From the NCBI RefSeq assembly GCF_947623445.1, contig NC_135243.1:21956479-22020478 (forward strand): DNA of 64,000 nt. The letters run 5' to 3'. Position numbers and translations under genes: made by a program. The first letter of the stretch is position 1. Every line of letters starts with the position of its first letter. Source of the stretch: Clavelina lepadiformis. Its lineage: Eukaryota > Chordata > Ascidiacea > Aplousobranchia > Clavelinidae. Positions 6,420-64,000 of the stretch are shown piece after piece. Below the pieces are notes generated by a model, which was given only the letters and a program-made list of their open reading frames with translations, was not told where the DNA came from and did not search any database.

Positions 6420-9400
6420 AACCCTTTGAATCTAGTGCTTGACTAGAAACTGCAAATGAAACCAAAATTTCATCCTCATAGCTTAATAAACTGTAAGCCT
6501 TAACGCAGAGAAAGGCTGTTCAGGAAAAGGCATACATTCTCTGCCATTCTATGAAAGCAGGAAACCGTCAGAAAGAAAGGAGAACCCTTTACGGTGAAAA
6601 ACATTTCAAATACTGTAATTTAGCCAGCGTTGTGTATTGCATAAGGAACCAAGCCAAATCCTTTATTCTTTTCATTTTTAAACACACCGTTTCTTGCAAA
6701 TCTTCTTTCTAAGGAGGTTCCGTGCATATCTCAAAATAATTGCCAGTGGTTTTCCAATTATCACATTATTTGCTATAGTCATGCTGAGTTAAACAACCAT
6801 TAAACCTCGTGCTCTGTGTTTCTTATTTCATTAGTTACACAACTGCAACTAAGTTACTGTAAGTGTAAGTTATACATGTATAACAAATAAATGCATAAGT
6901 TATATATAACAGTTATAACAGTCTGCCCGTGCTTTGCAACTATAAGGCTTATGACAAAAGAATTCATCTTACACAAAATCACCCGCTCGCTTACCTTGTC
7001 ATGAAAAACAGCTGCGAATGCGGTGACTTATGTGCAAGCGGTATCATGAGGAACATTGACCGTGCTAGAGGGCTCCAGTAGAGGCTCAGACCTAATAACA
7101 AAATTTTCAACGTTCAACTCGCTATCTCGCAGTTATGTAAAGAAATATCACAACAAAGCTGCAATATGAAAGTTGAAAGCGACAACGCTTTATTTATTTT
7201 TGTCTAAAAGGCATAGTCTGGCGTTGTGTGACATCAAACAAAGCATTTCTTCTACACTTGAAAGGTTGTTACTGTATTTCATCTATTAAGCCAATTTTCT
7301 AACACCCGCTTGTTGACCTTGCCATGAAAAACAGCAGTGTACGTGGTGACTGAAGTGTGTGACATCACGTTGTGACGTTGTGTGATATCAATCAAACCAT
7401 TTTTTATTACATTTAAAAGGTTATTACTGTATTTCATCTTTTAAGCCAACTTTCTAACAGCTAAGGATTTGGTGAAGGATGAAGTCTGTGTTCTAGCCCC
7501 AGGCAATCAATCGAAGATGAGTAAAGATCTTTTATGTGCTGCAAAATTTGTTTTCACCGAACTGGTATTCGTGAGATCTCAGTATTTTCATTAGCCCGGT
7601 CCGTGTTGATGGTTTATGCATCATTTCCTCAAAGATTCTCCTGCAAACGACTGCGTCGTATATATTCACAAGAGTTAGATCACAAGCAACGTGTAATCAT
7701 TTAGATCATTTCGTTTATCGTTGTCAGAAATTTGCTGGTTGTCAGCCTTAACGAGTATAGGGTTGGTGACAGACGGAAATGATAATTTCACAGTCATCCT
7801 AGACGTTTAGACCCGGCGGTAATTGCCGATAAGTGAGAAAAATTCGATACGGTAATGAATGCACGTGCGAAAATGCGTTCTCAATATGTTGTCAATGCCA
7901 CCATATGCTATATCCAAAAACCAACTGGTTGGGTAGAAAAGCGCCTAATGTTTCTTAGAAGTTTAATATGTGTATTTGTGTAGTTGTAGGTTATATTTAT
8001 ACGCTATTATCTATAGTTCATTACATAACCGCTTGTACTTTACGCTAACACTATTGACCAAATGTTACACAGTTTTGAATGGATCCATATGAGCTCAAAC
8101 CACATCATGCGGTTTAAATGTTTTGACTTAAAACACAATTTTTAGAGATTGCATTGTTTTAGTTTTGATTCCTTGAATGTTCAAGCGTATACATCTTATA
8201 CATGATTAAAACTCAAACCAATTGTAAACCCATATAAGTTACCGCTGCTTCATTTCGGCTATTTAATGTGTGATAGGACTACAGGTGAGCATTTTCTCTT
8301 GAGTTCTTTATTCGAAAACAGAAATAAAGATTTGTTGTAAAGGTTATGAAGAAATCAAGTTCTTGAGAGACAAGCTCATGCACAACTTAAAGTCTTAAGA
8401 TTTCATTTTCTTCCAAATGACACCGAAATGTTGTTTCTATTTCTTTGAGTTGTATCTCCAGTACACTTAGGATTAGAGACCTGACACTTTGCTGGTATGG
8501 TACAGTATAACAATCTTTATCCTCTGACTGGGGAAAGTGTTTGCACGACCTAAACTCGGTGAAGATTTCTTATCACTCCAATCCGGGTAAGTACCGAGCT
8601 TGTCTTTTGTGCAAATTCCAATAGAAACACACACTTTTGTATTTTGTTTATTGATTTTCTTAAAACCTTAAGAGAATTACATCGATAGCGCAACTAGGGA
8701 TAAAAACTTGACTTGTTTTGATCGAATATTTGGCAGTTTTGTGATATTTCTCTGTTCAGACTCTTCTTCGCAATGGCAGGAAACACAACACAAAACGTCA
8801 CAGCTTCCTATTAAATGGCAGCCTAATATGTAGCAATAATAAAGATGATATAAAATAAGACAAAACATCCAACACCATTTAAATGGCTTAACATGTCCAC
8901 GTTTTTTTGAGCATGTTTAACAGTTCCATACGCATACTTTCGAAGTCTTGTCTCGTGCCTACTGCCTACATGCAAATACTCGTGTATCCTGAGACAAATA
9001 TCAGTTGTGATGAAGTGCTGCAAAGCTTGTGCGTACTTCATTTCAACAAGGAAGCCCTGTTAGCACTTTCGCTGCAAAACAAACGAATGACAAAGTGAAA
9101 AATTACCTCACAGTTAAAACCGCATATTAATGAGCGAATCATTTATTGCACAAACCACATTTTTCCTGCGAACAAACCTTTCTCATACTCTTGCAAAATA
9201 AGCCGATAAATAATTTGAACTAAGCCAGCTATAATCAAAATGGTAACAAATTAAAAGTAATAAAAATACAATAACTAACTTTCAGTTAATTTTTCGAAAA
9301 CAGAGTCGAACCCTTTGTGGTCAAACTGACAACGCTTCTGCGAAAATAAGCACAAATATCTTATTGCACTAAATCATAGTGTCCTTTAGTAATTCCCGTA

Positions 9401-11532: not shown

Positions 11533-11582
11533 CCGTTGTGTTGACTTAGGATTTATAAGAACACTACTTAGTGACAGACGAT

Positions 11583-15882: not shown

Positions 15883-15943
15883 TTAGGAGTGGTGAGACTC
15901 TCGGTATCAGAGACAATCTTTGAAGCAGTCGGAGCATAGCAAA

Positions 15944-17032
15944 ATGAATCCAGCTAACGATAGCCATAGCCGCAGTTCAAGCGGATCTTTGGAAATCCAG
16001 TCTAAAGATGTCTACATCAGGTTTAAAGGAGCCTGTCGAAAACTGATCTTTCGATTTAAAGACAGCAAAGATGAGACCGATGACGATCTACTCGGGGTCG
16101 AACAACAGAACAACCAGATTTCAGTCGTAGATGATTGTGCAAAGGACACGAAACTTGGTGAAGAAGATCTTCCCAAGGAAACTGAACAGGATGAAACGTC
16201 CGACTGCGAGGACCTCACTGAAGAACATGAACTTCCTTCCGAAGTCGAGACAGAGGTAAAAGAGGAAACTCCTGAAGAACCAATAGAGTGTGAGGAAGTG
16301 GAAGAGCTACCAGCAATCATCAGCGACGACCAGGAGGAAACAAAAACCAGCGACTATGATCCTGAAGAGCAACACGATGATATGAAAGAAGATCTCGATG
16401 ATACTAGCGATCATTTACCTGATGACGAACTCGAACAAGATGAAACCAAGGAAGATGATAACGAAATGACTGTTAAAGCAGAAGAAGAGCAATGTGAAAG
16501 CCAGGAAGATGAGGTGAAGGAAGTTGATGACGGTGAAGATGAGGTAAAAGAAGTCGATGACGGTGAAGATGAGTTAAAAGAAGTCGAATACGTTGAGGAT
16601 GAGGCAATGGCTCAAGATGAAATGCAAGAAGAACTGCAAGAAGACGAAGTCGAAGGTGATGATGACAGCGATGTCGCTGTACAAGATGCCGACGTCATCG
16701 ATGAAGAAAGTGAGCCTGTGGTTGAAGAACCATCAACCACCTCTGATGAAAATCACGAGATAGCACAATCCGACGATTCTGAAGAGCAACTTGAACCCAC
16801 GACAGAGGATGCAGGTCCTTCGACCGACGGCAGTGATCTCGAAGTTGAAGAAGAAATGAGTGAGATCAAAGAAGAGGATGGAGATGAAGAACCAAGCCAA
16901 GAAACTAAAGAAGAAGAAGAACACAAGGATGACGACGATGATCAAATCATTACCATGCTTCAATTGATATTGAAAAAGCAAGACCTTATGCTCACGTTGC
17001 TCACGGGAGGGTTGATGAAACCAGCTATCTAG
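15944..17032 (+). CDS. Acidic protein C, third member of the polyampholyte cluster
   Basis: Single open frame, 362 residues, ATG at 15944 (context gcaaaATG), TAG at 17030-17032. After a Ser-rich start, residues 21-38 (KDVYIRFKGACRKLIFRF) match the same positions of protein A in spacing and 8 of 18 residues. The next 280 residues are strongly acidic (E/D-rich with K, V and S). An imperfect repeat EDEVKEVDDG occurs three times around residues 190-220. The end is a hydrophobic segment (QIITMLQLILKK, then LMLTLLTGGL) that could be an amphipathic helix. No signal peptide. Being acidic and sharing a motif with strongly basic-block proteins, it could be an electrostatic partner for them (inference). 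Not recognised as a known family. Confidence 0.68.
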   Translation: MNPANDSHSRSSSGSLEIQSKDVYIRFKGACRKLIFRFKDSKDETDDDLLGVEQQNNQISVVDDCAKDTKLGEEDLPKETEQDETSDCEDLTEEHELPSEVETEVKEETPEEPIECEEVEELPAIISDDQEETKTSDYDPEEQHDDMKEDLDDTSDHLPDDELEQDETKEDDNEMTVKAEEEQCESQEDEVKEVDDGEDEVKEVDDGEDELKEVEYVEDEAMAQDEMQEELQEDEVEGDDDSDVAVQDADVIDEESEPVVEEPSTTSDENHEIAQSDDSEEQLEPTTEDAGPSTDGSDLEVEEEMSEIKEEDGDEEPSQETKEEEEHKDDDDDQIITMLQLILKKQDLMLTLLTGGLMKPAI

Positions 17033-35771: not shown

Positions 35772-38700
35772 ATGACAACTTTCAATGTGATCGCTACTGT
35801 TCTGGTCTGTTTAACATTTCTGCCAAAAGCACAGCTGTTACCACGTAAGTAAATGAAGCGTTTTGTTCGAAGGCAGGGGCGGATTGTACAATATGTTTCC
35901 CGGTCGGTTCAATCCAGGTTGATCCCCATTCAATATCTGTGGGTTGAATTGCTCTGGGGTTTGATCGAACGTTGGTCGAACTGAACGACAACCGTAAAAA
36001 ATACAGCACGTTTGTGCATTTGGCGTGTAGGTTTAAAACAAACTACCACAGTTAAAAAGCAGAGCTTTTATGCCACAAACAACAGAATAATTTCTGAAAT
36101 GTTTGTTGGCTGATTGCCTTCTAACTTATTGTGCAGTAGGCCTATTCCCGAATGACGCTTCAAAACAGTTTCACACGAAGATTCCTAATCAAAAATAAAT
36201 AATCCTATACAGTATACACGAAATTGTTGCCGGCTAAACGTTTGTAGGAAGTTTTAAGGTAGCCTAACGATGTTTGGTTTGTGTCAGAAATCCTCATTTC
36301 TCAACATCTTGGTCTTGGTGATCTTACTTTGTCTTTCCCCGAAGCAATTGCCCATCTTTTTTTGATTTTTGACATCGCTTTTTGTGATCGATTAGCGCCC
36401 GAATAGTGTTTTCCAACCCGTGACACCACACAATCTGTAGGCTATATCGCCAGGTACACTGTCCCCTTCGCGTGAAAAATTACGGATGAGTTTTTATTTT
36501 GTGTCATAACTTAAATACGAGTGTTTAGAACTTTATGAGGCTACGCGCTGGAATCTTTAAGTGACACTCGATTACAAAAAGATCAGGAAACAGTGTTCTA
36601 TAGATGTTTGAACAGCTTCGGAGTTTACGACAAAACCATGGAAATAAGCAAGACATTAGGCCAGGACAATAATACACGACAAAATAATCTTACAATGTAG
36701 GATGGGTCTTGAAACCTGGAATTAAAAAATTTCCCATTCAAGATACTTAAAGGACCTAAAGTTGAGGTATTCTGGTGCAATAACTTTTGTAGCCTACTGA
36801 TGCTGATCTCTCTCACTAATGAGCACGTCATTGAGCTTGCCTTACAACAATGAGGAAATATGCAAAAGGATGACAATGTAGCTGATACATTTGACTCGCG
36901 CATGAACTTGCAATTGTTTATTTGTCAGTAAACATTTACTTATACGGGCTATGGCGATGCGCAACTCCCTTATACCTTGGACAAACGGTCTTTACTAAAA
37001 TAAATAAAACAAAAACGAACAAAGTAAGCTGCTTGGATCTACGCACTTGGTTGGATTTCACTGGACCCGGGCGCCATGTACAGCTGCTGCCATGACATGT
37101 CGTGTTTGAAACAGAATTGTCGTTACAGTTGCACAGCAGTGTGCCGCCGGATTCTTGCGGTATATATATTGATATATACATATACATATTTGTGCGACCT
37201 AAATTATCAGCAAAAAGCCCATGGGTTGTAGCCCAACTTACCTATTCTTACGGCTTTGTTATCGCACTATATAGCGCTTTTATAAGACAATATTAACATT
37301 TACTCCCTAAATCGATTTCCTACATCCGTCCCCGCATAAATCTATCTCATGCTTTGCGTACATCATTGTGTAAAAATGATGGGTGTTTTACAGCAGATAA
37401 ATAAACTTAATAAGTGGAAAATTGTTCTTGCTTTTTCAGATCCATCCACAGGTCAGCTTGGTGGAACGGGTAAGGAAAGTTATTTTCGTTTACGGCAAGG
37501 AAGCGAATGTATTTTCAGTGACAAATAAGTTATTTTAATTGGAAACAGTCGATTTTGCGATTAAAAAACAGGTCGATCACCGATGGTTGCAAAACGAACC
37601 TTTATAAAGTTTATGCGAAATTGTATTCCAGAGTTCTTCACCAATGATAAAATCTATCTCGTCAGTAACTTCCAAGACAATTTTGTCGCGTCTCACCTAC
37701 ACTGTGTAAGATACGGAGGATCATTGGTCAAACTTATGTCCGAAGATGTTGACGATTTCCTGAGGTGGGCCGTACCGTCAGTCACAGGACGTCGTTTCTG
37801 GATAGGGATAGTTGGTGACATTGGTCTGAGCGAGCTAGGAACGTTTGAAAATCTGACTGAAGCCTATGTTGACTGCCAAAACTCAACCAACGATGACTTC
37901 TGTCAAAGCAACGTGGAAGGACCGCATCCAGTAACCGATGCAATTGCCGGCTCTTGTTTTGATGACGACAGTTGCTTGAACGAGAGTCGTTTCTTTGTCG
38001 ATGGTTCATCACTGGCAAGCTACAACAATTGGGCATCGGGCGAGCCCAGCAATGATACCAGCACAGATGATTGCGTCGTGAACGTGTTTGAGGATTGTCA
38101 CGACCCGGTAGGCTGCGTGACGTCGTATTGGATGACGTCACGATGTTTAGCTTCCAATAGTTTCATTTGTGAGAAAGACGGTAAGATTTTTTTCGTAGAA
38201 AATCATTTAAAATTGCGCCACGTCAATGCAATTTACGTCTTAACAATCTCAAAATTAATTTTTCAGCATGTCCAGACGTTATGGATCTAACTCCCTTCTT
38301 ATCCCCCGAAGTTGACGTCAATTTGGAGGAATTTTTGGGTCTTCAGACAGTTTGTAGTGATATTTTCGTCAGAACCACGTGAGTCTGTATGCCTATTGCT
38401 TATTGTGTCGGGTCTACGTAAGCCTTGTTAGGTGGGTTTCAAAGCTTGAAACATTTTATTTGATACAGTTAGGGGAGTAGCGGCAAAAAAAACTAAAAAA
38501 CAACACCAAGCTTTCACGGAAATTGCAGTAAAAGTTGACAATTGACAGAGTTATTACGATTTATTACCCAGGTTAAACTACTGTGCTCGCACATATTTGG
38601 ATCTAATTGACATCCAGTTTGGTGATCCACCGGATAATATTTGCGCCCCTGTCCACAACGGATCTCTTATTGCTCTTATTCAAAACAGCTCTTGCGTTGC

Positions 38701-47338: not shown

Positions 47339-50300
47339 CTGAAAGGAAAGGATGTTGCGTCATTTCCGGCCAGCCTTGGCGAGCGTGAAAGAAGAAGATG
47401 GAAGAGAAAGAGAATAATGAGAGCTGGAAAGAAAAGACGGAGTTAAGAGAAATGTAGAAGAACAACTCCGGAATCAAGCGGACAGATTGATTAGAACCTT
47501 GGTCATTCCCCGGTTGCTAAATATTCTCTTGTAATAATTACTGACACCAATCACTTACATGGAAATGAAGAAAAAGAAGAGAGAAGAGGAGGTGGAGGTT
47601 TATCGGGAGGAGCTGCTTTCTCCCTTGGTGGTAACCACCTTACGGCTGATGCTGTAGGAGTAGCTTCCACCGCCACCACCAGCATTACCTCCAGTGGCAG
47701 ACTAGGAAGAGGAAGAAGATCGAGATGAATCAAAAGTGTAGGAGACGAGGCGTTGCGTTTAAAAGTATCGATTTAACGAATTTTACGATTTCTACTTCAA
47801 AAATTGCCGCATTATTGTCACTCAAATATCATGATTGTTTAATTACTAGTGTGATTGTTATTATCATTGGTTTGAAATGATAGCAATTGCGTTTATGCAA
47901 CGATATACAATGTCCTTCCTAACCGAAGTAACTCTGATTCAATTACCAAATCACAATAAACACTGAATTATTTAACTATTCAACCAACAAATTAAAAGAA
48001 ATCAGGAGATTTTAAAGATTCATGAAATATACATGCAAGGTACGCTTGGAGCTGTTTCATAAATTACAGCAGACTATTTTAAATCAGGATGATTAAACCA
48101 GGCCAGGCCCAACATCTATCACTCACCATGTATCTGGATTTTGTGCGGACTTTGTTGAGAGCGGACTCACTCAATTCTGCTCTCTCTTCGGCTTCCTCCA
48201 ATTCATGTGTCGCCTTTCTGTATTTTGCCAAGTTCTGGTTCGCTTGTTCTTCCTGCAGAACAAAAACAGCGATCGTTCAAATGGATGACGTATGTAAGTA
48301 AATTACCTATGCCTTGACGTCATAAGTGACGGATACGTACAGCTTCTTCAGCCATCTTTTTGTATTGTTTCAGTTTAAGCTGGAGTTTTTCAACGAGCTC
48401 CTGCATGCGAAGTTGATTCTTCTGATCTTCATCGGCCTAAAAAGAGAGACACATGGAGATTGGTTGGATTAAATGACGACGAAAACGTCATAATGACCTC
48501 GGTAAGTTTGAATCATTGATTTGATTAAACTGTGGAGATTTAACTTAGATAGAAATAAGTGGAGGATAAGTTCAATGCAGCTTAAGTGAGATTGAAAAAT
48601 TCAACACGAATAATGGAAACAACGACACTTTAAATGCGTCAAAAATTAACACAACGCAGAAAAGGAAGCTACGTCACATCAAAGGTTATAACATACTTGG
48701 AAGGAAAGCTCCTTGAGGCGACGATCCATCTTCCTGTAGTTCTTGAGAGTGTCAGCGTGACGTTTCTGTTCAGCGTTTAACTCGGACTCTATCTCCTTGA
48801 TGCGAGCCTGGAGAGCGGCCAGAGCCTTGCGTCCTCCTTTGAGAGCGTAAGCCTCAGCATCATCTAGTTTGATCTGCGGTGAAGAGATAACTTATTGCAG
48901 CCTGTTCTCAATTTTCATTTTTCTTTTTAACTTGTAAAGAGTTGAAAGCGACTTGTTGTACCAAGTTGCAATAATCAACAATTACAATTTTCTTTTTTTT
49001 CAGTGAATTTAATTTTCCAAAAACAAAAGATACGAAAAAATGCTTTGTCGGTTTTTGTCCTTATTGTACTGCTGTTGTGGTACTTTGTATCATAACGTGT
49101 TTCCATACCGACATCTCGTGGACTTGAGTCTCAAGAGTCTTCTTCACTCGTTGCAATGACATCAGCAGTTGTTGCTCGCTACGGAGTTCCTCCGACATAC
49201 GAGATGCCTTCGGGAAGAATAATCGAGTTAAGCATACAAACTAGTTAAGTTGAACTTCGACTAAACGCCTAAAAACTTGAAACTTGATATAATTTTACAC
49301 GGATATATGCTTAGCATGTGATAAAAAGCAAGATGGAGATAACTAAACAGTTGTTTACAAGCGCGATTAAATTTAAACACGAATAATTGATAAACCAATA
49401 TTAGTTAATTCTAAAATCAAAAGGGGCTATGAAACATGGAAATCAGTCTGTCAGGGAAGTTTTTTTCTATCTTACATCAGATGTTGCCTTCTTGGCTCTT
49501 TCGTCAGCATCCTTGGCGATCATAAGAGCCTCCTCCAATTCAGCTCGGAGCTGTTCGTTCTCAGTCTCCAGCTTTCTGCGAGCTCCAGACAAAGCGGAGT
49601 TCTGAGCAGAGAGACCGTTGATTCTGTCGCTGATGTCGAGCAGTTCGTTTTCGGCGTGCTTGCCTACGCATCAGTGACGTCATTACGATTAAATAGAAAC
49701 TAATTGACAAATAATTAATGTGGCAGATACTTCAAAATGATAAGATAAATCTACACAACTAAAAGCCTAAAATAAATAATAATAAAAAAGATTTGATGGT
49801 AGAACTTTAAGATTAACCTATAAACTCCACTTCAATTTTAGCCTGGTCATAACGAAAAGCACTCAACACTGAGGATACTCAGAAACTCCAAAGCCAACTT
49901 GAGTGAAAAATAAATTACTTACGAGCGCGCTCGTTCGATTCAAGAGCAGATTTTGTTTCTTCATATTCGGACTGAATGATGGTGATCTTTCTCTCTTGGA
50001 TGCTGTACTGCTCCCGGAGTTCCTCGTGGATGCGCTGATCTTCGTCCATCTGGTCTTGGATTTCCTACATCAAAAGGTCGTTAAAACCGCTTAACTCTGC
50101 TTAAAAAGTAGGTTTTGAATTTCTGTTTTCAAAATTATAGAGACACGAATAATCGTGTCAGCTGCTTTATGAAAGGAAAGCTTTAATACAAAAATTAAAA
50201 TATTGAATTTTATTGCTTAAAGTTTGTTTAAACAACTCTGCCAGGCCAGAAAAAAATTAACAAGAAATCAAAAGAAATGAAACCTTGATGGTGACTTGGA

Positions 50301-53300
50301 GTTTCCTCACAAGCTTAGTCTGTTCACCCAAGTTACGGTTCGCATGGTCGAGTTGCATCTCGGTGTCATTGAGCTGACTCTCAAACTTCTTCTTCGCGCG
50401 TACGGCATCGGCTCGACTCTTGATCTCAACATCCAGACTCGCTTGCATGGATTCGATCGCACGAGCATGGTTCTTCCTGCAGGAGGATAAAGTTAGAATT
50501 CGTTTTCAGTTAAGGTTTTGTTTGTTTTTATTTAAACGCGTAGTATCTAGCCCTGACGTTTTAACAGCAGTTCAAGCATAGGCCTGTTTAGTGGGAAGTA
50601 TTATTCTTCCTGCGGGAGGTTAAAGGTTCTTACAAGGTTAGGTCTAGGTCTAGGTCTAGGTTCTATAAAAACACCGTTTCACTTAATTTCTATTTGGAGT
50701 TATGTTTTAGTAAACTTTTTGCATAAACGTAAGCTATGTCTTGTCAAAGTCGACCTTGTGCTGTCGAATTCCTCTTCTTTCTCCTGCAACTTGCGATCAA
50801 TGTCGGCCTTAACTTGGGTCAACTCAAGCTGAAGGCGAAGGACTCGGCTCTGGAAACAAAACACCAATTTTTGTGACAAAATGGATTTTCTAAAACAGAA
50901 ACTACAGTTTTTGCAGTTGCTGATAAAAATGAATTACTCCGATAAAGGTTGTTACCTCTTCGAGCTCAAGGGCGCCTTCAGCTTCCTCAAGGGCGGCTCT
51001 CAGTTCCTCACACTCAAGCTCAGCCTTCTTTCTGGCTTTGTCGAGCTCGTGGAGTGACTTTCCTCCGGTTGTAAGTTGATCGGTGAGGTCGCTAATCTCC
51101 TCTGTAAGCAAAAGTGTTTGGGAAACATTTGAAAAACTTTCCACTTAACACAGAGCAAGTTAGCAAGCATTAAGCACTAAGTAGGCTAACTAGTAAGATG
51201 CGAAGCAAAGTTGAATGCAGTTTTCTCATCCGTAACATTAGTTTCATTGTCTATGAAAAATAGGCCAACACAACACTAAAAAGCTAATGAGCTAACGCAA
51301 AATTTCAAAACATTGCGTAGATTTACCAGTCAGGTTCTTGTTTTCTCTGCGAATGATGTCAAGCTGCTCAATACTTTCCTCATAAGAAGCCTTGAGTTTG
51401 TATATCTCAGTTGAGTAGGTGCGGACCTCACGTTGAGAGGCTTCAAGTTCAGCTTGGAGTTCCTCAACTCTTTGGCTCCAAGTTGCAATCTCTTTGTCGA
51501 AGTTGCGCTGTTTCTTATCCAAGGCAGAGATGGTAGCGTTTGCCTGGAATGATAACGGTTTTATCAATTTCCTGTTGTTGTTTTTATGTGTTTGGACGCT
51601 CATAACTCAATGCTTGAATAGTGCTTTGTTATCATTCTTTTATGAAGCCGTTTTCTTCTGAAATTGATAGCTTTGAAAATGAGTTTACAAAAAATATTCT
51701 TTCAAAATTAATAATACGAATTTGTCACCATTGCAATTTTTTGTGATTTTTATTTTTCTATGTTATTTGTTTGGTTTTATATTGTTTGGTTTTAATTATT
51801 ATCGTTTGGTTTGTTATTTGCAACTTACTCTTTCGAGATCAATAGTCAGGTCTTCTACTTCATTCTGAAGACGGATTTTGGTCTTCTCCAAGCTGGCGCA
51901 CTTGGCAAGAGCATTCTCAGTTTGCTCTTCAGCTTCCTGAAGACGAATGGCAAGCTTCTTCCTGATGAGGAAGAATTGAACAAGGTAAAAAATCAGTGTT
52001 GAAGCGCGGGATTATCAAGCTTTATCAGGATGATAAGACAGATGAGGATAAGAGAGATAAGGATGAGAGAGATGAGGATAAGAGAGATGAGGCTAAGAAA
52101 GATGAGGATAAGAGAGATGAGGATAAAAGAGATGAAGATAACAGAGAGAGTGATAAGAGAGATGAGGATAAGAGAGATGAGGATAAGAGAGATGAGGATA
52201 AGAGAGATGAGGATAAGAGAGATAGGGATAAAAAAGATGAGAATAAGAGAGATGAGGATAAAAGAGATGAAGATAAGAGAGTGCTGTACTTGGCTTCCTC
52301 GAGCTCTTCCATCCTTTGAATAGCGTCTGTCTCATATTTGTGCCTCCAGTTGGCAACTTCGGCGTTCGCCCTGGAGAGTGCTCTTTGAAGTTCACTCTTG
52401 CCTTCCTGTTCTTCTTCCACCTGCTCCCGGAGGAGGTCCAAGTCGTGGCGTGCAGCTTGGAGAGCGTGAGCTAGAGAGTGCTTGCTCTGGAATAAAGATT
52501 ACAAGACGATATAAACACTTTTCCATAAACCAAAAATCTATGAAGTTGCGAACGTTTTTACCAGTTATAGAGCGTTGTACAAATGCTTATTACTGTAATT
52601 ATTATTTTTAAGCAGCTGAACAGAAGTGGCTACCAATAATACCTTCGATTCTTCCTCGAGCTGACGTTTGAGGTCTTCAATATGTGACGTCATTTGAGAC
52701 TTAGCACGGGACAAGGCACTGACCTAAACGTATCAAAAGTTTGGTAAAAACATTCGACTTTTCACAAACGGACGTTCTCGGGAATTTCTTCACCCACTTT
52801 GCTCTCAGCATCCTCAAGTAGGTGAGAACTATCAGCTGATTCACTGGTGAGCTTGTTCTTGATAATGGTGAGCTCGTTGATGCTGCGGAAGTTCTCCTCA
52901 ACCCTGATTTTGAAGTCGGTCACTTGCTCCTCCATGACACGAACGTTAGCTTCCGCACGGGACTGAAATGAGAGGAAAAGACAAGGGAACGTGAAGAATT
53001 ACGACATCGGGCTTCTAAGACTTGTGGCTTGTGGCAGTAATTTCTGAAGTGGTGTGTCCCGCTTCTGACGTCACAAATTACCTTCATCTTGCTGATTTCC
53101 TCAAGCTGGCTAGTGACGTCATCAAGTTCAAGTTGAAGTTGAACTCTCTCCTTGTCGACCTTGTTCTTAACACGGGTCAAGCTCTCGACCTGAAGAGAAA
53201 AGAAAATGATAACGAAGAGCGGTTCAGGCTGGTTTCGAACCAGGTTACGATTCGACGACACCTACCGTTTCAACTAGGTCGTTGATCTGGTCTTGTTGTC

Positions 53301-56300
53301 TCTTCTTCATTTGGCTCAAGGCAGCGTCATTTTGCATGACAGCCTCTTCGAACTCGCGACGAAGTTTAAGGTAGTCGGCTTCGCGACGTTTAATCAGTTC
53401 GATCTGGTTTATGATAGACAACAAAATATTTTAGACGAATGGAAAAAAACGTGACGCCGTATGGCTATTGAATAAACTGATAGTTAATTTTACTTCACTG
53501 AAATTTTACTCCTGCATACCAAGAGAAACCAAATCATCATCAGTCAAAATGAACAACAGTCACCTTATCCATAAGCTCAGCGTTCAAACACTTGTTACAT
53601 TTGACACCGCCTCACCTGAGCCGCTGTTGCACCACCAGCTTCTTCCAGTTGCTCTGTGAGATGGTCCATTTCACGCACAAGATCGTTCCTGTTTCTCTCA
53701 ATCTTGTTGCGGGCGGTCCTCTCAATCTCCAACTCGCTTTCTGTGTCTTCAACGCGCGCCTAGTGAAGGAAGCAAGCGGATTTTAAGGTTCGTAATACTA
53801 TTGTTAGTGGTTATTGCTGTTATGTTCATTGTTAGTCGTCACCGCTGTTAAAAGTTATTAAAGTTATTACTATCAAAAGTTCAGCAATAACTATTATTTC
53901 AATATTAAAATATTTCGTAACAGTTTTTATTGATAAGACAGATCAGTCTTTCTGTATTATTTTTTACAGGTAGTATTTAGACAGATATTTTTTCTCTCAC
54001 CTGGAGTTCCTTAATCTTCCTCTGGAGCTGGATAACCATATTCTGCTCGTCTTCAAAGCGTCCAATGAGCTGGTTGATTTCGAAGTCTTTCCTAATATGA
54101 AAAAGGTTGCAATAAATCTTTATTATGACAAATTTTACCGTTAATTGTCACGTCACGATACATACTTGCGATTAACTTCTTCCAGAGAAGATTTATCCTT
54201 CTCGAGATCCATGATGTTGTCGTTCGCGTTCCTTAAGTCGTTCTCGAGTTTCCTCTTTGCTTTTTCAAGATCGGACTTCTGCTTGCGTTCTTGTTCCAGG
54301 GAATCCTCCACCTAGTTCATTGATACTTTTACCATTTTGTAGGTTGAGTCATTTTGTAATTCAACGTAAACTTAGGCTGGCTCAATGGAAACAGTTCACA
54401 CGTTTTGCTCAAAATTAGAAAGCATTTACCGATGAACACAAAACACAGTGATGACGTAGCAACCAAGTAAACTTTTAAAACGCTCCAACTGTTTTATTGG
54501 AAAGGTTAATGCGCCATCAACTATAGTTAATGTTGGGTAGAGTTAATAGTTAATTCAACCAGGTTGTCACTAGTTTATTACAAAGGCGAGTATTTAACTC
54601 ACGTCTTCAATCTGCTGCTCAAGCTTGGTCTTAAGTTTTCCGAGGTGGTTGGCCTTATCCTCCATAGCTTGGAGGTCCTCCAGAGTCTGCTGGTTGACTT
54701 GATCCAGCTGTTTCTTCTCTTTGTTGAGGCGGCTGATGGATTCTTCACGCTGCTCCAAGTCGGATTGCAATCCACGGAGTTTGAGATCAAGACCCTGAAG
54801 AAGGAGAATAAGTTACCAACCATTTGAGAGTGTAACTTCAGTATTTCGTTACTGCTACGAGCTACCGTTTGTTTGACGTTTGTAATATCAATGATATTAA
54901 TTGTCTTATTAGTCGAGTGATTGTCAATTAATTAAATCCACTTGTTGATTACTTCCTTCCGTTTAAGACAAAAGCCATACTTTGCAAGTTGTCAAGTATG
55001 GAAGAGATAAAATTATTGAAATAAAATTATTCAATTATTAACTGGTAATATTAATCGATTACCACTTTATCGATTACGTCATCTACTATTTATCTATTAA
55101 ATAATCGATTATTAAACAACCAACCTGCTTGTCCTTCTCGAGGCGATTGATGTTGCTCTCGGCTTCTTCAACGTCATGAGTAAGATCTTCGACTTGTCTG
55201 TCAAGCTTCCTCTTCGCGGCGCTCAATTGTTCATTGGTCGCCTCTTCCTCCTCCAAGCGCTCTTGCATCTCGGCATTCTATTGTGACATCACAATTACTA
55301 GATCGTATCAAACGAAAACTCAATGATATTTGCTGACTGAGCAGTCTTGATTATGTTAACTGAAGATTTTTTATCAACCTGGTTTTCGAGATCCTGCTTG
55401 ACTTTGACCAGTTGCTCGTTTCTCTCCTCCGCATCTGCAAGATTCTCTTGCTCCTGTAAGAGAATGATCATTTTAATGATATCGTTTGAAATAACTGGAA
55501 CTAACACTGTAAAAAATAACAACGATTAAATACTAAATATTATTTATCGGACGTAAATAATTTTTTGCATGGTGTATAAGTGCTTTGGTGTCAAAACTGG
55601 CTCCAGGTTTGTCATCTGAATTACCTCAAAGCATATTTTATATCGCAAAGAAGGCGGCACCCTGGAGTTGATATTTTCATTCACAAACACCGGTTCCGTC
55701 TGAGGTTCGGCTGTCTGCTGAAGATTCTCTTTACCGCTTTCGTTTAGCTCGGGCGTGCTTTGACCTTTCTGCGAGCTTTTGCACGCCATAAACAGGCCGC
55801 TTTCGCTAGAAGTTTCTGTTCTACGTCGACCAAGGCCTTCGCTTTCAGTATCTCTGTTATCAACGTCCAATAACCAGTTTGTTACCCTGTCATGCCCGTC
55901 ACTGTAAGAACCTACATCATTGTTTATATCAGGGGTTTTATCATTGACGTAACCTAAACTGGTTGTTACTTGGTCATAGTTAGATGGGTCAAATTCCTCG
56001 GAACTGGCAACGCTAGGTATTGGATCGTCGAATAGGTTATGGCTGACGTAACGATTACGTAACTCGACCAATTTCGAGCTCATTTTACCACTCATGAGAG
56101 AGCACCGTCTGTGTGTGACTTCATCAATTTCATCATCAGCGTCAGAATACCTTGGGGCGTGAACCAGGCCGTAGTTGACGACATCATCAGACGTACCAAT
56201 GACGTCATAGCTGACACCAACAACGGCTTTGTCGTTCTTGGGGTGACAAAAATTCTCTTCGTGAGATGGCGCTTTGCAAGAACTGCGTAAAACTCGATTT

Positions 56301-59300
56301 TCATTTTGCGATGGAGATTTTCGTAAATCCAAAGCTCCATTGCTGTTGCTTGGACGAGTTTTATGGGCGATTTCGTCATCACTGTCAGAGGGAAAGTTAA
56401 TCTGCGTCACTGGCTTTCTCCTATTCCGGGAGCGTCGATGGACGACAACTTCGCTACCATCAAGATTTGACATATTTAATCTTTTATATGGTACTTTTTT
56501 GTAACTTGTTCTCCGAAAACTTGTCTCAGAACGAAAACGTATCGTGACGCAAAATCACCACAAAATTCGAAATCGGTTTTCCTCTGAACTAGCTCGAGCA
56601 ATCATTTAAAATACCCTTGAACGTAGCTGACTAATACGGGTGTAAACGGACAAATTCTCACTAAGTTATGTCCAGCTCAAACAGGGCCGAAAGTAAAAAT
56701 AGGAATTGATTGAAGAGACAGCATCGTAAAGATTGTTAACAAATGACAGTTTATCGTCATCTCTGACGTCAAACAATGGGAGACTATGAACAAACAATCG
56801 AACGAGAGAGACTGACAGCTAAGACAATAGATGAATTGTTTGACAAATATTAAACCCAAACTTCGCTCGTGCCGTCTTCAGGAAAGAAAAATAAACCAGT
56901 TTTAGTCGTTCTAAAGAGACATTTATGCAAAAAATGCTTTAAGAGAAAGTTTGGACAACTTTGGTTGCAAATAACGAATAAAATTACCGCAACATTGCGA
57001 ATAAATTTAAGTCACATTTTGTTCCATGTAAACTAAACCTGAAATTGGGGACACTTGGACGAAAATTGTAAAACTTGCCCAAGTCATTCACGTTAAAATA
57101 TTTCTTGTTCAAGAAAATTTCTTTAAGCTACGTTAGCGTCTGCAACTTGCTTTAAACCACCGCTCGTCCCTCAAATTTAAATGTAATATACTAATGTCAT
57201 TTGTTAATGTTAATTTACCGTTGGTTCGTCTGGCACTGTCCAACGCTACGTCATAAATTAGCTCACAAAAAAAACGAATGAATCAAACTGCAAATAATGA
57301 AGTCAGAAGCGTAAAGAATGAGTCACTCGATTAGCACACAGACTTTGCAAAAAATGAAATGACTTTGCTTGTTTTAGAAAACATTTAGTAATATGTAATT
57401 TCGGAACACAAAGCAATAAGCCGTAAAAGAAGATTAAATAGTTTGATCAATCGATGTGAAGACAAGACCGAATTCACAAAAACAGGCAACAATGATACGA
57501 AACAAGTGTTTGTTCTATCATTATAGTTATATCCTCAACCCGACCTCTCTCCTGACCTTTAATGATACCCATAGATCAACCTAAAGCTAAGGTCATTGAC
57601 CTCTTGATCAATACGTCAGTAAATAAATGGAATTCAAATACGAGCGGGCAGCGCAATCAGCGAAACGCTTTGCTTGTCGTAATGCGTCTGTTTGTTCTAT
57701 ATAAGACCGCGGTTTCAAAAGGCAAACAGCGAGATAACGACTTGAGATTGAACAGTGTTTGTATAAGATAGTTTCTAGATTTGCTTTTTTTGCTATTTGC
57801 TTATTCTTATCGATCCCTATAACTGAAATTATTCGTTTTATGCTTTTAAACATCAGTCAGCGGTTAACTGTGACCTGGGCTCCAGATCTGGTTAGCAAAG
57901 TAAACGCCACCGCAGACTAATCGTGTTAATGTTATCTGGTATTTTAGTCAACTTAAGTTGAGTTTTCTGATGCTTTAGGACACATTTCACTCACGGCTTG
58001 AAGTTGAAGGGTGAGGTTGTTCTTGTCGGCGAGGAGGGTGACGCATCTTTCCTCATACTCCTTCCTCAGCTTTTCTTCCTTCTCATGCTTCTCCTTGAGC
58101 TCAGCAATCTCCTCATCCTTCGCCTTCAACTCATCCTCGACTCGGACCACGTTGAGCAGGGGTTTCACCTAAATGGAGAACAAATAAGTTACACTCTGGA
58201 TAGTGATAATGAGGCAGATGAAGTCTCATGGGTAAGCGGAGGTGACAGCATCCGAGATTTTTACCTTGGTGTACAACTTCCACCACTGCCAGTCGCGGAA
58301 CTGGAGGAATTTTCTGATGTTCCTCTGGATGGCACGGGCTGCACGTCTGTGATGTAATAATGAAATAATTAATGACGTCATAATATCAGCTTTATGATGT
58401 CATACAGGTAGGTGTCTTCTTAAACACGCGTCACTCACTGTCGCTCGAGCATCTTCTGAAATTCGATCCTCATCAGTTTTCCTCTTGATCGCGATTGCAT
58501 CTTAGTCACGATTACGGCCAGAATGTCATCTCTCCTGTCTTCAAGATCGGCAAGGACTCCAGCTTTGAAGAAGATCTAGAACGTGAGGACATTCTTTCAA
58601 TTAAACAGGAAAATAAGAAGTATTTAGACTGTGTAAGTTGAGTTAAAACGTCTGCTGCGATGTTTCAGCTGCAGTAAACATTCTTACGTTAGAGCGCGTG
58701 CAAGCGCATTGCAAACTTAACAGATTAATTATTGAGTTAGTCGTAACTTAAGGTCAAATAACGAAAAATGATAACTGTTCGAACTGTTACATGAGTACTG
58801 CAATAATAAATTACCTAAAGACCTTCAGGAACTAGTACATTGTACCTTATTACTGTATCAACTTATTACGAAATAAAGTTCAGCGGTTTCGTATTCAAGT
58901 AAAAAGCAACAAAGCAACAAGGGAATAACAAGAAGCGGATCATCTCTACTTGCCTTTGTGTGACCAATTTTGTAGAGGGCAAGGTCCAGTTCAATTGCAC
59001 TCAAGATAGTCTCGGTGGCCTTTTTGCTGTCCACTATGTTGGCTACTTGCTTTGCGGCCAGGATTTGGTATCTATAGGAGGATATAATGTCTTTTAGTTG
59101 AATTATGTTCTGTGCAGGTTACGATAAGATGAGGAGTCCCTAAGTTGTGACGTGTGTTTTATTCGATTACAAGACCTCGTGTGTATGGCGGTGAAATATA
59201 AAAAGACTAAAAAATAGAAATGTAAGACAACAAACGAAGTACATTAACGTTATGCAAACGTTGTAGTTTTGATTCAGTTACAAAGTTTGTCATTGCATAA

Positions 59301-62300
59301 ATTTCACCTTTGTTTGAACTCAGGATACTGCAGCCTGTTAGGAAATCCCTTTCTGCAGATCCTAATACCTTCAAGTACACCGTTGCATTTCAACTGGCCA
59401 AGAACCAACGCTAAAATATTGAAGCTCGTCATATATACACGCGATTAAATGGAAAACAGAACAATCAGGATGACGTCTGATTTCGTCATAATGACGTACC
59501 TGCATCCATGACGCCGGATTGCTTCATCTCGTTGGGGATGAGGCAACGCACGAAATGGGGTTTGGTGTTACGCAAGTTGGTCATCAACTTATTCAGTTGT
59601 TCCTGGTTGACGAAAAATTTGACCAGAGTTATTTCTACGAATAACACAACGCGAATACAGCCTCATTTTGCAATAACTTGAGGGTAAACCCACTGACCCT
59701 GTAAAGCGCAGAGACAGTCTGGAAGCTTCCACCGCCCTTTCTTCTCTTGGATCCGCCAGCTACGTCACAAAGTTGCGTTATTACGTCACAATAAGTTATA
59801 GAATAACTAAGATAAAATAAACTGATGTATGATATTGAGTTTGCGTTCAACTCGTGCATAATCAAGCTTGTGGTTGATTAGTTTTTCCGAAACATTTTGT
59901 TTTCGTTCTAAAGTATTCTTACTGTCTTCTGGGACTTCCGGGAAAAGATTCGCCATCAATTTGTTGGTAGATTTACGGAAGAGCCCGACCACGGTTTGGT
60001 TGAGCGGATCCTTATTCTTGTCCAACCAACCTCCGACGTTGTATCCGACCTGATTGTTACAGAACAGTGGATTTAGCCCCTTCTGGTTGAAATATTCTTA
60101 AACGTTAAGAGTTTAGCTGGCTGACGGGTTTAGAGAAAAATGGATTCAGGAAGAATTATGAGCGGACGTGACGTCATTTACCATGATACGAACAATTACT
60201 TCAAATCAACAAACATTTCACTCAAGATACGGTTTCAGCTCGATTTAACCCACAAACGATTCAAGCCCGGACGACCCAAACAACATCCGTGGGTTGAAAA
60301 TGTCCTGGGTTTAATCGCCGTGGATTAAATTGACCGACCACTGTTATATACCACTGCACTATTGTGTACCAGTAACAAGTTTCAAGTTCACGTTACAACT
60401 GTGTTCTTCCAAACCAGATGACAACTCACAATTCCGGCGTAGTGGATGACAGAGAAGTGGGCGTTGCTCTTCACTTTTCCTCCGACTTTTGGCTTCATGA
60501 AGGCCGAAGACTTCTTCTCATGGCGTTCGTAGAGCTTGTTTTTGAACGTTTCGTCCGTTGCCTTGGGAACGATAGACTCCTCCTCAAGGATGGAGAACAC
60601 TCCCATGGGCTTCGATAAAAGATAACAAAACCTTTAAGGCTTGCTCTCATATGATAAGAAAGAGTAAGCAATCAAAATGTTTGGACGGGTTCAGTTATAC
60701 CTCCGCTGTAGTTATGTTAATCAGGAAGAACTTAAAGTTAAACTTTTATTTAAGCTCTAAATTGCATCTTACCGTTCGACTTGGGCTAAAGATAATTTCA
60801 AACTAGTTTTAACCTTCACGTGAGAATAGCATTTGATCCAAAACGCAGCTTCTAGCGTACGATTATTTCGAGAAAAAAGATCACTATTGTCTATCAAACT
60901 CTGGATTTTAGCCAATATTATGGGGTGTCTTTGGCCTTAGGTTTGTGTTTGGTAATAAGGTTAAAAGAAACTCCAGAAAACTCTGAAAATTTTTCGGATT
61001 TCGGTTACCTTCTCCAGGAGCTCGATGCAAGCCTGAAGATCCATTCCGAAATCGATAAACTCCCATTCGATTCCTTCCTTCTTGTATTCCTCCTGCTCCA
61101 GAACGAACATGTGATGGTTGAAGAACTGCTGCAGTTTCTCGTTGGTGAAGTTGATGCAAAGCTGCTCGAAGGTGTTGAACTGCGCAGGAGAGGAAAAATC
61201 GAAGAGTGAGTTAACAACAGTATTAGAGATTAATAACTAATAAAACTAATAAAAGGAAATTCATAAACATAAATCAAGAAGGAAACTGCTTCGAAAATGT
61301 TAATGACTATAACTGCAAGACGAATTGGCAATACTTTCCTGGGCTTGAAACTATTATAACGTCAAATCGCGAAAGTGTTAGGTATATATTTGAAGTGCTA
61401 TACTCACTTCAAAGATTTCAAAACCAGCGATGTCCAAGACACCGACAAAGTAGTTTTTGGGCAGCTTTGTGTCCAGGGTAACGTTGAGGCGATAAACGAT
61501 CCACTTGAAAAGATTGTCGTACACGGCTTTACCAAGAGCACCGGTGGAATTTTTGCACTAAAGAGCAGAAACGAATGCACAGTCACAGTAAAAAGACAGT
61601 AAAGAAAACATGGAAATAAAACAATCTTTTGCGTAGACCGAATGCAAGAACCAATACAGCGGAAGGTATTATGTTAGTCAGACGTTTCGGTCGATACTAC
61701 AACCATGTCTAATGTACTGCAAAACAATCTTTATTGCTGTTTGAATATCCTCGCTTACCTGGGCGATATTCTGGCCCTTCTGTACGTATTCGGTACCGAC
61801 TTTTACACGAGGGCGAGTGATGCTCTTGCAGAACTCAGGCGAGCTGATACCGAAGAGGTAGGAGACTTTATCAGATACTGAAAGTGAAATATTGGAAATT
61901 AGATCAGGATTTGATGCGGTGAATTAAGTTTCAGTCTAGACGAAAACGACTTAAGAGAATACAATTGAACGATTCTATCTTAAGTTTGAGATTCCGCTGG
62001 TGCCGCTATCGTCATATTATGGCAATTAATATAAAAATGGAAAATATGATCATCAATAAATTATTTCCCGGCTAACTGACTGATCCAAGGTATCGTCAAT
62101 TAAGTTGTTTTAAAATACAACCGGATCGAGTTATTGCGTTGTCCGTTACAAGAAGAGCCTATGCAATTTATTTTGCTGCCTATTTTCATCTCGCATAGAA
62201 ATAAAAACACGAAAGTAAGGCTGAAAGTAAGGATTCAGTTACACAAGTTAACAGTCAGTTAACAGTTAACAGTTAGCAGTTAGCAGTTAGCAGTTAGCAG

Positions 62301-63959
62301 TTAGCAGTTAGCAGTTAGCAGTTAGCAGTTAACAGTTAGCAGTTACACAAGTTACAGTTAACAGTTACACAGTCACCCACCGTCAACGGAGTCGACCTCA
62401 GCTTGTTCTTCTCTTGGCTTTTGTTTGTACGCCATGTTACCAAACACCATGACGCCACAAGTCAAGCGATAAGCATTCAGTTTCTCTTCATCACTAAAGC
62501 CCAGGACTCGGAAAGCTTCCTGTTACAGAAGTAATCACGTTCCATATTAGTCAATTAATAGGTTAATTGATAATTACTTAAATAGGCATGCGAGTGTCAG
62601 TCAATTCTTAAAACAAACATCAATAGGACACCGCTGGTACTGAATAAGTTGAGAAAGCTTTTGCGTAGGATAATACGACTTTCTCGTCGTATAGCATAAA
62701 AGCATTAAAAGATATTTGTCACTCACGTCGGTGAATTCGTATTCCTGTTTGTCGTCCATGTTGTCGACAGTGGTAACGCCCTGGCTAACCCAGAAATAGT
62801 CACGTGGATTATTGGTAATCTGGAGCGTATCCAGAAGACCCTGGTCACCAGAGGTCATTAGCTGGAAAAAAAGAGCACAAGACAACTTGATTACTCATTA
62901 CTGTCATCTCATTGTCCAGCGAACCGACAAACTGAAGATTTAAGATTAAACGGAAGGAAAAAATCGAAAACGTTTTGCACTTACCTGGTAGAAGATGTGG
63001 TAGCCACGTTCAGCCGGCAGTTGGAAGATGACTCGAGATTTCTCCAGAAGATAGGACTCGATGTCGCCTCCAGAGAGCTTTCCGCTGGTGCCGAAGTGAA
63101 TTCGAATGAACTTGCCCTGGAAGTTGAAGGAAAAAACAAATAAATTCTACTTCCGACAAAATAAGTGAAGCTTGACCGCATGATATTATTCTAGAATACA
63201 ATACAAGCGGAGTGAAACTTTTGCGTTAATTGTTCGCGTGCGTTTGTTATTTTTTGTCATTCTTGTTATTATTATCAATAACTTTGCATTTTAACTGTGA
63301 CGGAATAAATCAAACGAATATAGAATTGCAAACAACTATGCTGACCATCTGACGATCATTATCAGAAATTCTTTTAAAATAACTTAAACTAGCCAAGCAT
63401 TTAAGGCTTAAGCATCTTTCTGCTCTCCTGTTCACTCACAAAGCGAGAAGAGTTGTTGTTGCGGATTGTCTTGGCGTTACCCCAGGCTTCAAGCACAGGA
63501 TTAGTCTGGACAATCTGGTCCTCAAGATTCTGTTTCTTCGTCTCTCCTCCATCTTTCGGCACAGCGGCAGCGATGTTGGCGAAGTACTGGATGACCTTCT
63601 TTGTATTCTCAGTCTTACCGGCACCGGACTCTCCGCTGGAAAACAGATTTTTATTTGGGGTGAGATAACGGACAACCATTCATGAGGGTGAAACTTTTCT
63701 CTCTAGTTTTCTTTCTAATGCCGGACTCGGACTCTGTAGGGATGTTTACTATTGCAAGTTTGTCATGTACTTACGTAATCAAAATAGATTGGTTTTCACG
63801 ATCAGTCAACATGTCATGATAGGCGTTATCGGCCACCGAGAAGAGATGCGGCGGCATCTCGGAGCGCTTTTTCCCGCGAAACATGCTAACGACCTTAACA
63901 CCGTACACTGGCAACCACTTGTAAGGGTTGACGCAGACGCAGAATAGACCAGAATAGGT
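46994..63959 (-). CDS. MYH: Muscle-type myosin heavy chain (class II), 5' end outside window
   Basis: Forty exons, all in phase, give 1838 residues to the short tail; about 100 N-terminal residues lie beyond the right edge. In transcript order: 63775-63959, 63440-63635, 62985-63116, 62727-62861, 62381-62519, 61759-61877, 61408-61557, 61009-61179, 60430-60609, 59923-60049, 59698-59759, 59500-59602, 59308-59410, 58954-59071, 58439-58575, 58265-58346, 57995-58168, 55379-55453, 55125-55277, 54603-54794, 54166-54311, 54001-54091, 53616-53759, 53266-53403, 53082-53189, 52798-52962, 52643-52723, 52290-52486, 51829-51961, 51327-51543, 50956-51101, 50755-50849, 50284-50476, 49923-50064, 49476-49663, 49109-49207, 48697-48873, 48341-48436, 48127-48252, 47600-47701. 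Visible: [10 protein letters not shown]-loop [13 protein letters not shown], switch I NNNSSRF, switch [11 protein letters not shown], loop 2 [10 protein letters not shown], actin-binding/SH1 region ([11 protein letters not shown]), converter [14 protein letters not shown] segment, then the coiled-coil rod. Actin-based motor of muscle thick filaments. Confidence 0.93.
47600..47701 (-). CDS. Short C-terminal tail exon of the myosin gene
   Basis: Acceptor cctcttcctag; the frame continues from the last rod exon: [16 protein letters not shown] and ending KGESSSSR, then TAA. A glycine/serine-rich, non-helical tailpiece of 33 residues, as expected for the end of a myosin II rod. Confidence 0.75.
   Translation of the reverse strand, partial: SATGGNAGGGGGSYSYSISRKVVTTKGESSSSR
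52026..52281. repeat. 15-bp minisatellite in a myosin rod intron
   Basis: About 17 copies of gagatgaggataaga and close variants fill most of the 328-bp intron 51962-52289. The unit is a multiple of three without stop codons, so spurious long open frames appear on both strands. On the gene's sense strand it is pyrimidine-rich (cttatcctcatctct). Confidence 0.9.
55625..56473 (-). CDS. Internal alternative first exon: headless myosin-rod protein (catchin/myorod/MRP-like)
   Basis: In the 2.5-kb intron after the first S2 exon, an ATG at 56473 opens 283 in-frame codons. They end at a good donor (ttt gag, then gtaatt) in phase 0, which joins [14 protein letters not shown], the next rod exon at 55453. 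The product would be this unique N-terminus plus the remaining rod, about 1350 residues, with no motor. The unique part looks disordered: basic start ([11 protein letters not shown]), acidic runs ([14 protein letters not shown]) and kinase-like sites ([18 protein letters not shown]). The known parallels, from internal promoters of Mhc genes, are Drosophila myosin rod protein and molluscan catchin/myorod. A TATA-like ccatataaaag at 56481-56491 is too close to the first ATG; if used, Met127 would be the start. A nested unrelated gene is the alternative reading. Confidence 0.65.
56474..57994. other. Myosin intron segment upstream of the internal first exon; possible internal promoter
   Basis: About 1.5 kb without coding signal. 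It would hold the promoter of the rod-only transcript. A TATA-like element at 56481-56491 and a tattttaaa-type AT box near 56604-56612 (- strand) are visible, but neither is decisive. Confidence 0.4.
60200..60350. repeat. Dispersed repeat remnant in a myosin intron
   Basis: Inverted, it reads ggtcggtcaatttaatccac and then aacccacggatg. This resembles the segment at about 35885-35985 (ggtcggttcaatccaggttg, gtgggttgaa) in intron 1 of the + strand CTLD-ZP gene. Likely two old copies of one mobile element; ends not defined. Confidence 0.3.
62242..62365. repeat. 7-bp microsatellite (cagttag)n in a myosin intron
   Basis: About a dozen copies of cagttag, with cagttaa variants at the edges, in the intron between exons 62381-62519 and 61759-61877. 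Confidence 0.8.
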
Positions 63960-64000
63960 CTATATAGAAAACAATGCTCACATAAATAATTAAGTAATGA

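What the first reader, a model, noticed from the sequence alone, without database searches (positions are those of the whole stretch)
55379..58168. A headless myosin-rod protein encoded from inside a chordate myosin gene
The intron between rod exons 57995-58168 and 55379-55453 holds a 283-codon exon with its own ATG. Its donor (gag, then gtaatt) is in phase with the next rod exon. Seen directly: open frame, donor, phase match, and a much longer intron than elsewhere in the gene. Established: Drosophila myosin rod protein and molluscan catchin/myorod arise this way. I do not know of such a product from a tunicate or vertebrate Mhc gene. If real, it is either a very old bilaterian arrangement kept in tunicates or a repeated invention.
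Basis: partly seen in the sequence, partly recalled or inferred. Interest (0 to 1): 0.9.

Follow-up and report, generated by a model that had tools for sequence, protein, structure and literature searches.

The report
Possible headless myosin in sea squirt
Inside one intron of a sea-squirt muscle myosin gene lies a long open exon that looks built to make a motorless form of myosin (the rod with a new front end), a trick known from flies and clams; whether the animal really makes it could not be checked here.

Summary
A complete sarcomeric myosin heavy chain gene (1962 aa, 43 coding exons) lies on the minus strand. Its intron after residue 895 is 2541 nt; the other 41 are 74-503 nt. It holds a 336-codon open frame, an ATG at 56473 and a donor (GAG|GTAATT, 55625/55624) in phase with the next rod exon. 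Predicted product: 283 unique, probably disordered residues plus 1067 rod residues, 155 kDa, no motor. The frame is not chance (0 of 2000 shuffles reach it; strong 3-base periodicity), but splicing to the rod is inferred: the donor alone would arise in 11% of codon shuffles, codon-usage tests were inconclusive, and no muscle promoter motif was found. The assembly fits Clavelina lepadiformis. Three sarcomeric paralogs have the same intron at 72-78 nt without the exon. The gene branches outside C1, C3 and MYH7, suggesting the tunicate Mhc3 (body-wall muscle) type. The junction differs from both published rod-only products (fly MRP, molluscan catchin), which favours separate invention over an ancient arrangement. 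Best reading: a catchin/MRP-like headless rod isoform, a new variant of a known kind, about 0.6 likely. Public RNA-seq (ERR10908613) would decide it.

The parts
47600..64000 (-). Host gene: sarcomeric myosin heavy chain, 43 coding exons, 1962 aa; stop codon at 47600-47602, start codon beyond the window (position 64893 in extended window coordinates, in L014)
   Evidence: Exon model read by eye and checked by script: consistent phases, GT/GC-AG introns, one stop at the end
57995..58168 (-). First rod exon (58 codons), skipped by the predicted rod-only mRNA
   Evidence: equals MYH7 836-893 by the gapless alignment
55454..57994 (-). Long intron (2541 nt) that holds the alternative first exon
   Evidence: Next longest of the 42 introns is 503 nt; single-copy in the genome
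55625..56473 (-). Predicted coding part of the alternative first exon, 283 codons from ATG to GAG
   Evidence: Open frame, shuffles, periodicity
55619..55624 (-). Donor GTAATT, phase 0
   Evidence: Score 7.10; 41 other donors of the gene: median 7.52, first quartile 6.24
55454..55473 (-). Acceptor of the second rod exon, usable by both transcripts
   Evidence: Best-scoring AG of the intron, 9.22
55379..55453 (-). Second rod exon, first shared exon of the predicted rod-only product
   Evidence: starts at the equivalent of MYH7 residue 894
47600..55453 (-). Shared rod exons, 1067 residues
56482..56488 (-). TATAAAA, the only TATA-like match in 57994-56440; sits too near the ATG at 56473 for the usual spacing (spacing recalled)
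   Evidence: functional meaning unknown
55472..55477 (-). ATTAAA, possible poly(A) signal for the nested-gene rival

Best explanation
The intron holds an alternative promoter and first exon. Transcription starting inside the gene would give an mRNA whose 283-codon first exon splices in phase onto the rod exon at 55453, giving a headless myosin of 1350 aa (155 kDa): an unfolded, serine-rich, acidic N-terminal arm (net charge -12, two RRxS/T sites) on the whole rod except its first 58 residues. The rod would dimerise as a coiled coil and co-assemble with ordinary myosin into thick filaments, presenting the arm where two motor heads would be; this would dilute motors and offer a phosphorylation-controlled contact to other filament proteins, as described for molluscan myorod. 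Shown: frame, donor, phase, intact shared rod, absence of the exon from three paralogs. Inferred: promoter, splicing, assembly, regulation. By tree position the gene is probably the tunicate Mhc3 type, so the likely place is non-striated body-wall and siphon muscle (inferred). If the TATA match is the real one, translation might start at Met127 or Met131, leaving 157 or 153 unique residues.
For: Open frame beyond chance; periodicity in both halves, stronger in codons 1-126; donor, phase and an ordinary 171-nt intron to the strongest acceptor of the region; intron five times the gene's next longest; no in-frame usable acceptor upstream, so a first exon rather than a cassette; rod complete and gapless against MYH7 828-1242; precedents in flies and molluscs (PMC3912159 passages) and evidence that headless rods assemble into thick filaments in Drosophila (PMC13322953 passages) and that phosphorylated myorod raises myosin ATPase in co-filaments (PMC4410989 abstract and passages).
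Against: No RNA or protein evidence was available. No relative of the unique part was found. Codon usage is not frame-specific: other frames and the antisense score as high or higher. The donor could be chance (10.8% of codon shuffles). No CAGCTG-type E-box, MEF2 or CArG match in 57994-56440, and the one TATA match is badly placed for the ATG at 56473. PMC3912159 warns that rod-protein isoforms cannot reliably be predicted without mRNA data.
Confidence: 0.6

Rival explanations
1. An independent single-exon gene nested in the intron on the same strand: 309 codons from ATG 56473 to the stop at 55544-55546, perhaps using the ATTAAA at 55477, with no link to the rod.
For: The frame runs 26 codons past the donor before its stop, and an ATTAAA lies at 55477. 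The donor is not beyond chance.
Against: The donor is among the three best of 262 sites, in the right phase, close to the end of the frame. ATTAAA is common in AT-rich DNA. No homolog as a separate gene was found. Periodicity after the donor is not above shuffles (532 of 2000 as high), though that stretch is short.
Confidence: 0.17
2. A frame that was once used or is only leakily transcribed: an exon relic or an open reading frame without a protein product.
For: No conservation could be shown; no relative found; codon-usage tests inconclusive.
Against: 336 codons without a stop and periodicity above all 1000 controls suggest present or recent selection.
Confidence: 0.14
3. A cassette exon included in full-length myosin between 57995 and 55453.
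For: Both flanking exons are phase 0, and an AG at 56525 is in frame with the open frame.
Against: That AG scores -1.72; the weakest of the gene's 41 other acceptors scores 3.94. An insert of some 300 unfolded residues in the S2 coiled coil is hard to reconcile with function (inference).
Confidence: 0.03

Closest known systems
Catchin / myorod of molluscs (known here from passages of PMC3912159, PMC12040844, PMC4410989)
   [quoted passage not shown] arm with candidate phosphorylation sites.
   Different: Catchin has 156 unique residues and the last 830 rod residues; here 283 unique and 1067 rod residues, a junction well upstream. Relatedness of the unique arms could not be tested. Transcript not shown here.
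Drosophila myosin rod protein, MRP (passages of PMC3912159)
   Same: Rod-only product keeping nearly the whole rod; unique N-terminus reported as unconserved between close relatives.
   [quoted passage not shown] here a separate exon splices to the second rod exon, 58 residues into the rod.
Lottia Mhc8 (passages of PMC3912159)
   Same: Encodes only the coiled-coil tail of a myosin.
   Different: A separate gene, not an isoform, and without the long unique catchin exon.
Telokin (recalled, no call)
   Same: Product of an internal promoter in a muscle gene, lacking the catalytic part of the parent protein.
   Different: Derived from the MLCK gene, not a myosin.

Membership tests
Rod-only products of sarcomeric Mhc genes (general kind) | Lies inside a full sarcomeric Mhc gene and shares its rod exons | tested here: met
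   Complete gene model; in-phase junction
Rod-only products of sarcomeric Mhc genes (general kind) | A transcript and protein lacking the motor exist | not testable with these tools
   No RNA or protein data; ERR10908613 is named in PMC10884593
Catchin / myorod | Junction leaving the C-terminal 830 rod residues | tested here: not met
   1067 rod residues remain; catchin figures from PMC12040844
Catchin / myorod | Unique N-terminal domain related to that of molluscan catchin | not tested
   No catchin sequence was on hand
Catchin / myorod | Phosphorylatable N-terminal arm | tested here: inconclusive
   RRCS at 122 and RRRT at 216 of the unique part; motif matches only
Drosophila MRP | Start as an extension of the first rod exon | tested here: not met
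   Separate exon with its own donor, joined to the second rod exon
Tunicate Mhc3 / vertebrate MYH16 type (host gene) | Branches outside the other chordate sarcomeric Mhc genes | tested here: inconclusive
   Outside C1, C3a and MYH7 with support 94/97 in a five-row tree with a very long outgroup branch; no MYH16 or Ciona Mhc3 sequence on hand

The most novel reading that the evidence does not exclude
Tunicates independently evolved a catchin-like headless myosin from their body-wall (Mhc3-type) gene: a motorless rod with an unfolded, phosphorylatable arm that helps build the thick filaments of non-striated chordate muscle, perhaps in the place of paramyosin, for which the rod-family search listed no locus.
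Probability: 0.25. Interest if true: 0.78.

Novelty: new variant of a known kind. Interest (0 to 1): 0.55.

Why it matters
If transcribed, this would be, as far as the searches here went (open-licence papers, and only the listed part of long result lists), the first rod-only product reported from a chordate muscle myosin gene. It would be a further origin at a different place in the rod, showing that motorless myosin is a repeated solution. It would also let the still unclear role of such rods be tested in ascidians, whose adult body-wall muscle is non-striated but built from striated-type proteins (PMC7397655 passages).

Tried and rejected
Relatives of the unique exon: only itself in the own genome; Pfam gave two sub-threshold matches, E 0.07 and 0.28; PDB best E 0.24; GTDB contigs, 76 pattern matches, none confirmed; IMG/VR contigs, 8 pattern matches, none confirmed. 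A second GTDB scan with the neighbouring rod, hoping for stray tunicate contigs: 46 pattern matches, none confirmed. Repeat or transposon origin: the DNA search found the intron only once, with the limits that tool states. Chance open frame rejected. Cassette exon judged unlikely. Codon-usage tests gave no usable frame-specific support; I read the high scores of all frames as an effect of the frame's higher G+C (0.457 against 0.343 in the other introns). Muscle promoter motifs in the intron: none of MEF2, CArG or CAGCTG/CACCTG/CAGGTG. Single-sequence structure prediction was uninformative (pLDDT 35.5), so no fold search was run. The 300 to 15 papers listed of long search results were not all read: one search listed 30 of 30,432 (the word start also matched 'catching'), one search listed 15 of 75, one search listed 12 of 156.

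Full report
What is there. The window lies on contig C4 of a 209-Mb assembly with 95 contigs. The contig lengths held (C1 28.78, C3 25.73, C4 25.07, C6 20.77 Mb) fit the chromosome table of Clavelina lepadiformis (28.79, 25.74, 25.07, 20.77 Mb; total 210.1 Mb in 102 scaffolds) in PMC10884593 (passages read). The species is therefore inferred, not stated by the tools. On the minus strand I built a complete sarcomeric myosin heavy chain gene of 43 coding exons and 1962 residues with a single stop, at its end; its first three coding exons lie beyond the window.

The intron. After residue 895 the gene has an intron of 2541 nt. The other 41 introns are 74-503 nt. The same intron, same phase, exists in three sarcomeric paralogs of the genome: C1 78 nt, C3a 72 nt, C3b 72 nt. 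A fourth rod gene, C6, has no intron at that place in the spliced alignment. So only this gene has room for the exon.

The frame. Between in-frame stops there are 336 open codons (55544-56554), an ATG at 56473, and at 55625/55624 the donor GAG|GTAATT, phase 0, matching the next rod exon at 55453. In 2000 dinucleotide shuffles of the intron, both strands, the longest open run was 240 codons (mean 103); the extrapolated P is about 3e-7. Periodicity of base composition is 0.0436, against a mean of 0.0089 and a maximum of 0.0315 in 1000 stop-free random sequences of the same composition. Split in two, codons 1-126 exceed all 1000 and codons 127-283 are reached by 23 of 1000. Among 161 windows of the gene's other introns the largest value was 0.032. 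The 27 codons before the ATG show no periodicity (943 of 2000 shuffles as high), nor does the stretch of 26 codons and stop after the donor (532 of 2000); both are short.

Results that do not help. A codon log-odds model gave the frame the best mean of the six frames under two training sets, by small margins. A synonymous-codon test was not frame-specific: depending on the training set the frame scored z 2.9 to 3.5, frames +1 and +2 2.9 to 6.8, and one antisense frame 6.1 to 8.1. I therefore do not count codon usage as evidence. The donor scores 7.10, within the gene's own range (median 7.52, first quartile 6.24), third of 262 GT/GC sites in the intron. But codon-shuffled copies of the frame carry a phase-0 donor of that strength in their last 120 nt in 10.8% of 5000 trials; the gene's real exons hold 3 such internal sites in 5889 nt. 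The intron upstream of the ATG has no MEF2, CArG or myogenic E-box match, one CRE (TGACGTCA at 56771) and one TATAAAA at 56488, which lies only 15 nt before the ATG. The link to the rod is thus likely, not proven, and the promoter is a guess.

First exon, cassette or nested gene. The only phase-0 AG inside the open frame before the ATG, at 56525, scores -1.72; the weakest of the 41 real acceptors scores 3.94. A cassette exon in full-length myosin is therefore improbable. A nested gene of 309 codons ending at 55544-55546 remains possible, with an ATTAAA at 55477. A first exon spliced to the rod leaves an ordinary 171-nt intron and uses the best acceptor of the region (9.22).

Predicted product. 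283 unique plus 1067 rod residues make 1350 aa and 155.4 kDa. Over the region tested the myosin aligns without a gap to MYH7 828-1242, which puts the junction after MYH7 residue 893. The unique arm is rich in Ser, Asp, Val and Asn, net charge -12, with RRCS at 122 and RRRT at 216. It lies on the disordered side of a charge-hydropathy boundary (formula recalled) and gave no confident structure from a single sequence. It has no relative in this genome, Pfam, PDB, GTDB contigs or IMG/VR contigs; no other tunicate genome was available to search.

Which myosin. Rod identity is 52% to C1 and C3, which are 77% identical to each other. C1 matches PDB Myosin-4 and Myosin-7 with about 570 bits over 417 residues and a striated-muscle myosin of another animal (3jbh, tarantula as recalled) with 408; the window gene matches them with 352, 384 and 354 over a similar stretch. 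In a five-row tree MYH7 groups with C1 and C3a, leaving the window gene outside (94/97), with the caveat of a very long outgroup branch. The review PMC6589888 (passages) says that Ciona Mhc3 forms, with vertebrate MYH16, the sister clade of all other chordate Mhc genes and is expressed exclusively in body-wall muscles. By that pattern this is probably the Mhc3 type. PMC7397655 (passages) says that tunicate adult body-wall muscle is non-striated but uses striated-type effectors. No MYH16 or Ciona sequence was on hand, so this stays an inference.

How it would work. Motorless rods assemble into thick filaments in Drosophila transgenes (PMC13322953, passages). Molluscan myorod lies on thick filaments and, when its N-terminal arm is phosphorylated and it is co-polymerised with myosin, raises the actin-activated ATPase of myosin (PMC4410989, abstract and passages). 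By analogy the tunicate product would dilute motors in the filament and present an unfolded arm whose phosphorylation sets contacts with neighbours. Nothing here tests this.

Comparison with the known. [quoted passage not shown] that the long unique catchin exon is present in several molluscan genes; and that without mRNA data homologs of the fly isoform cannot reliably be predicted. That warning applies here. The present exon joins the second rod exon, 58 residues into the rod: neither the MRP nor the catchin place. With its absence from the paralogs this favours an independent origin.

Verdict. Observation confirmed. A headless-rod isoform is the best explanation (0.6), a new variant of a known kind; a nested gene is the main rival. 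Mapping existing RNA-seq would settle it.

Noticed in passing
window 4722-6431 (-) and 11559-14270 (+): Two long frames with repeats that alternate Arg/Trp/Cys-rich blocks (such as KRRCKRRWRRRWRRRCKRKQ) with Asp/Ser-rich blocks; no Pfam family at E 0.001. Nature unknown.
   Followed up: partly
window 1-64000: The octamer TGACGTCA (CRE-like palindrome) occurs 16 times against 1.0 expected from a first-order Markov model; it is rare in most other loci fetched (0 to 3 each).
   Followed up: partly
C3:6845069-6852977 (+, in L009) and C3:6855366-6863400 (-, in L010): Two nearly identical sarcomeric Mhc genes (99.7% rod identity) lie tail to tail about 2.4 kb apart: recent inverted duplication or ongoing gene conversion.
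   Followed up: no
whole genome G000: The Myosin_tail_1 search listed 42 matches in five loci (C6, two on C3, C1, C4), each with motor-domain matches nearby; no separate paramyosin locus appears, though only 43 of 54 candidates were scored.
   Followed up: partly
L014 6950-7680 (-): A forkhead-type transcription factor exon upstream of the myosin gene, recognised by eye from its translation; no family search run.
   Followed up: no
window 37565-38290 (+): A C-type lectin domain frame (Pfam PF00059, E 2e-9).
   Followed up: no
window 15896-17032 (+): A 378-codon, extremely acidic (Glu/Asp-rich) frame without a Pfam family.
   Followed up: no
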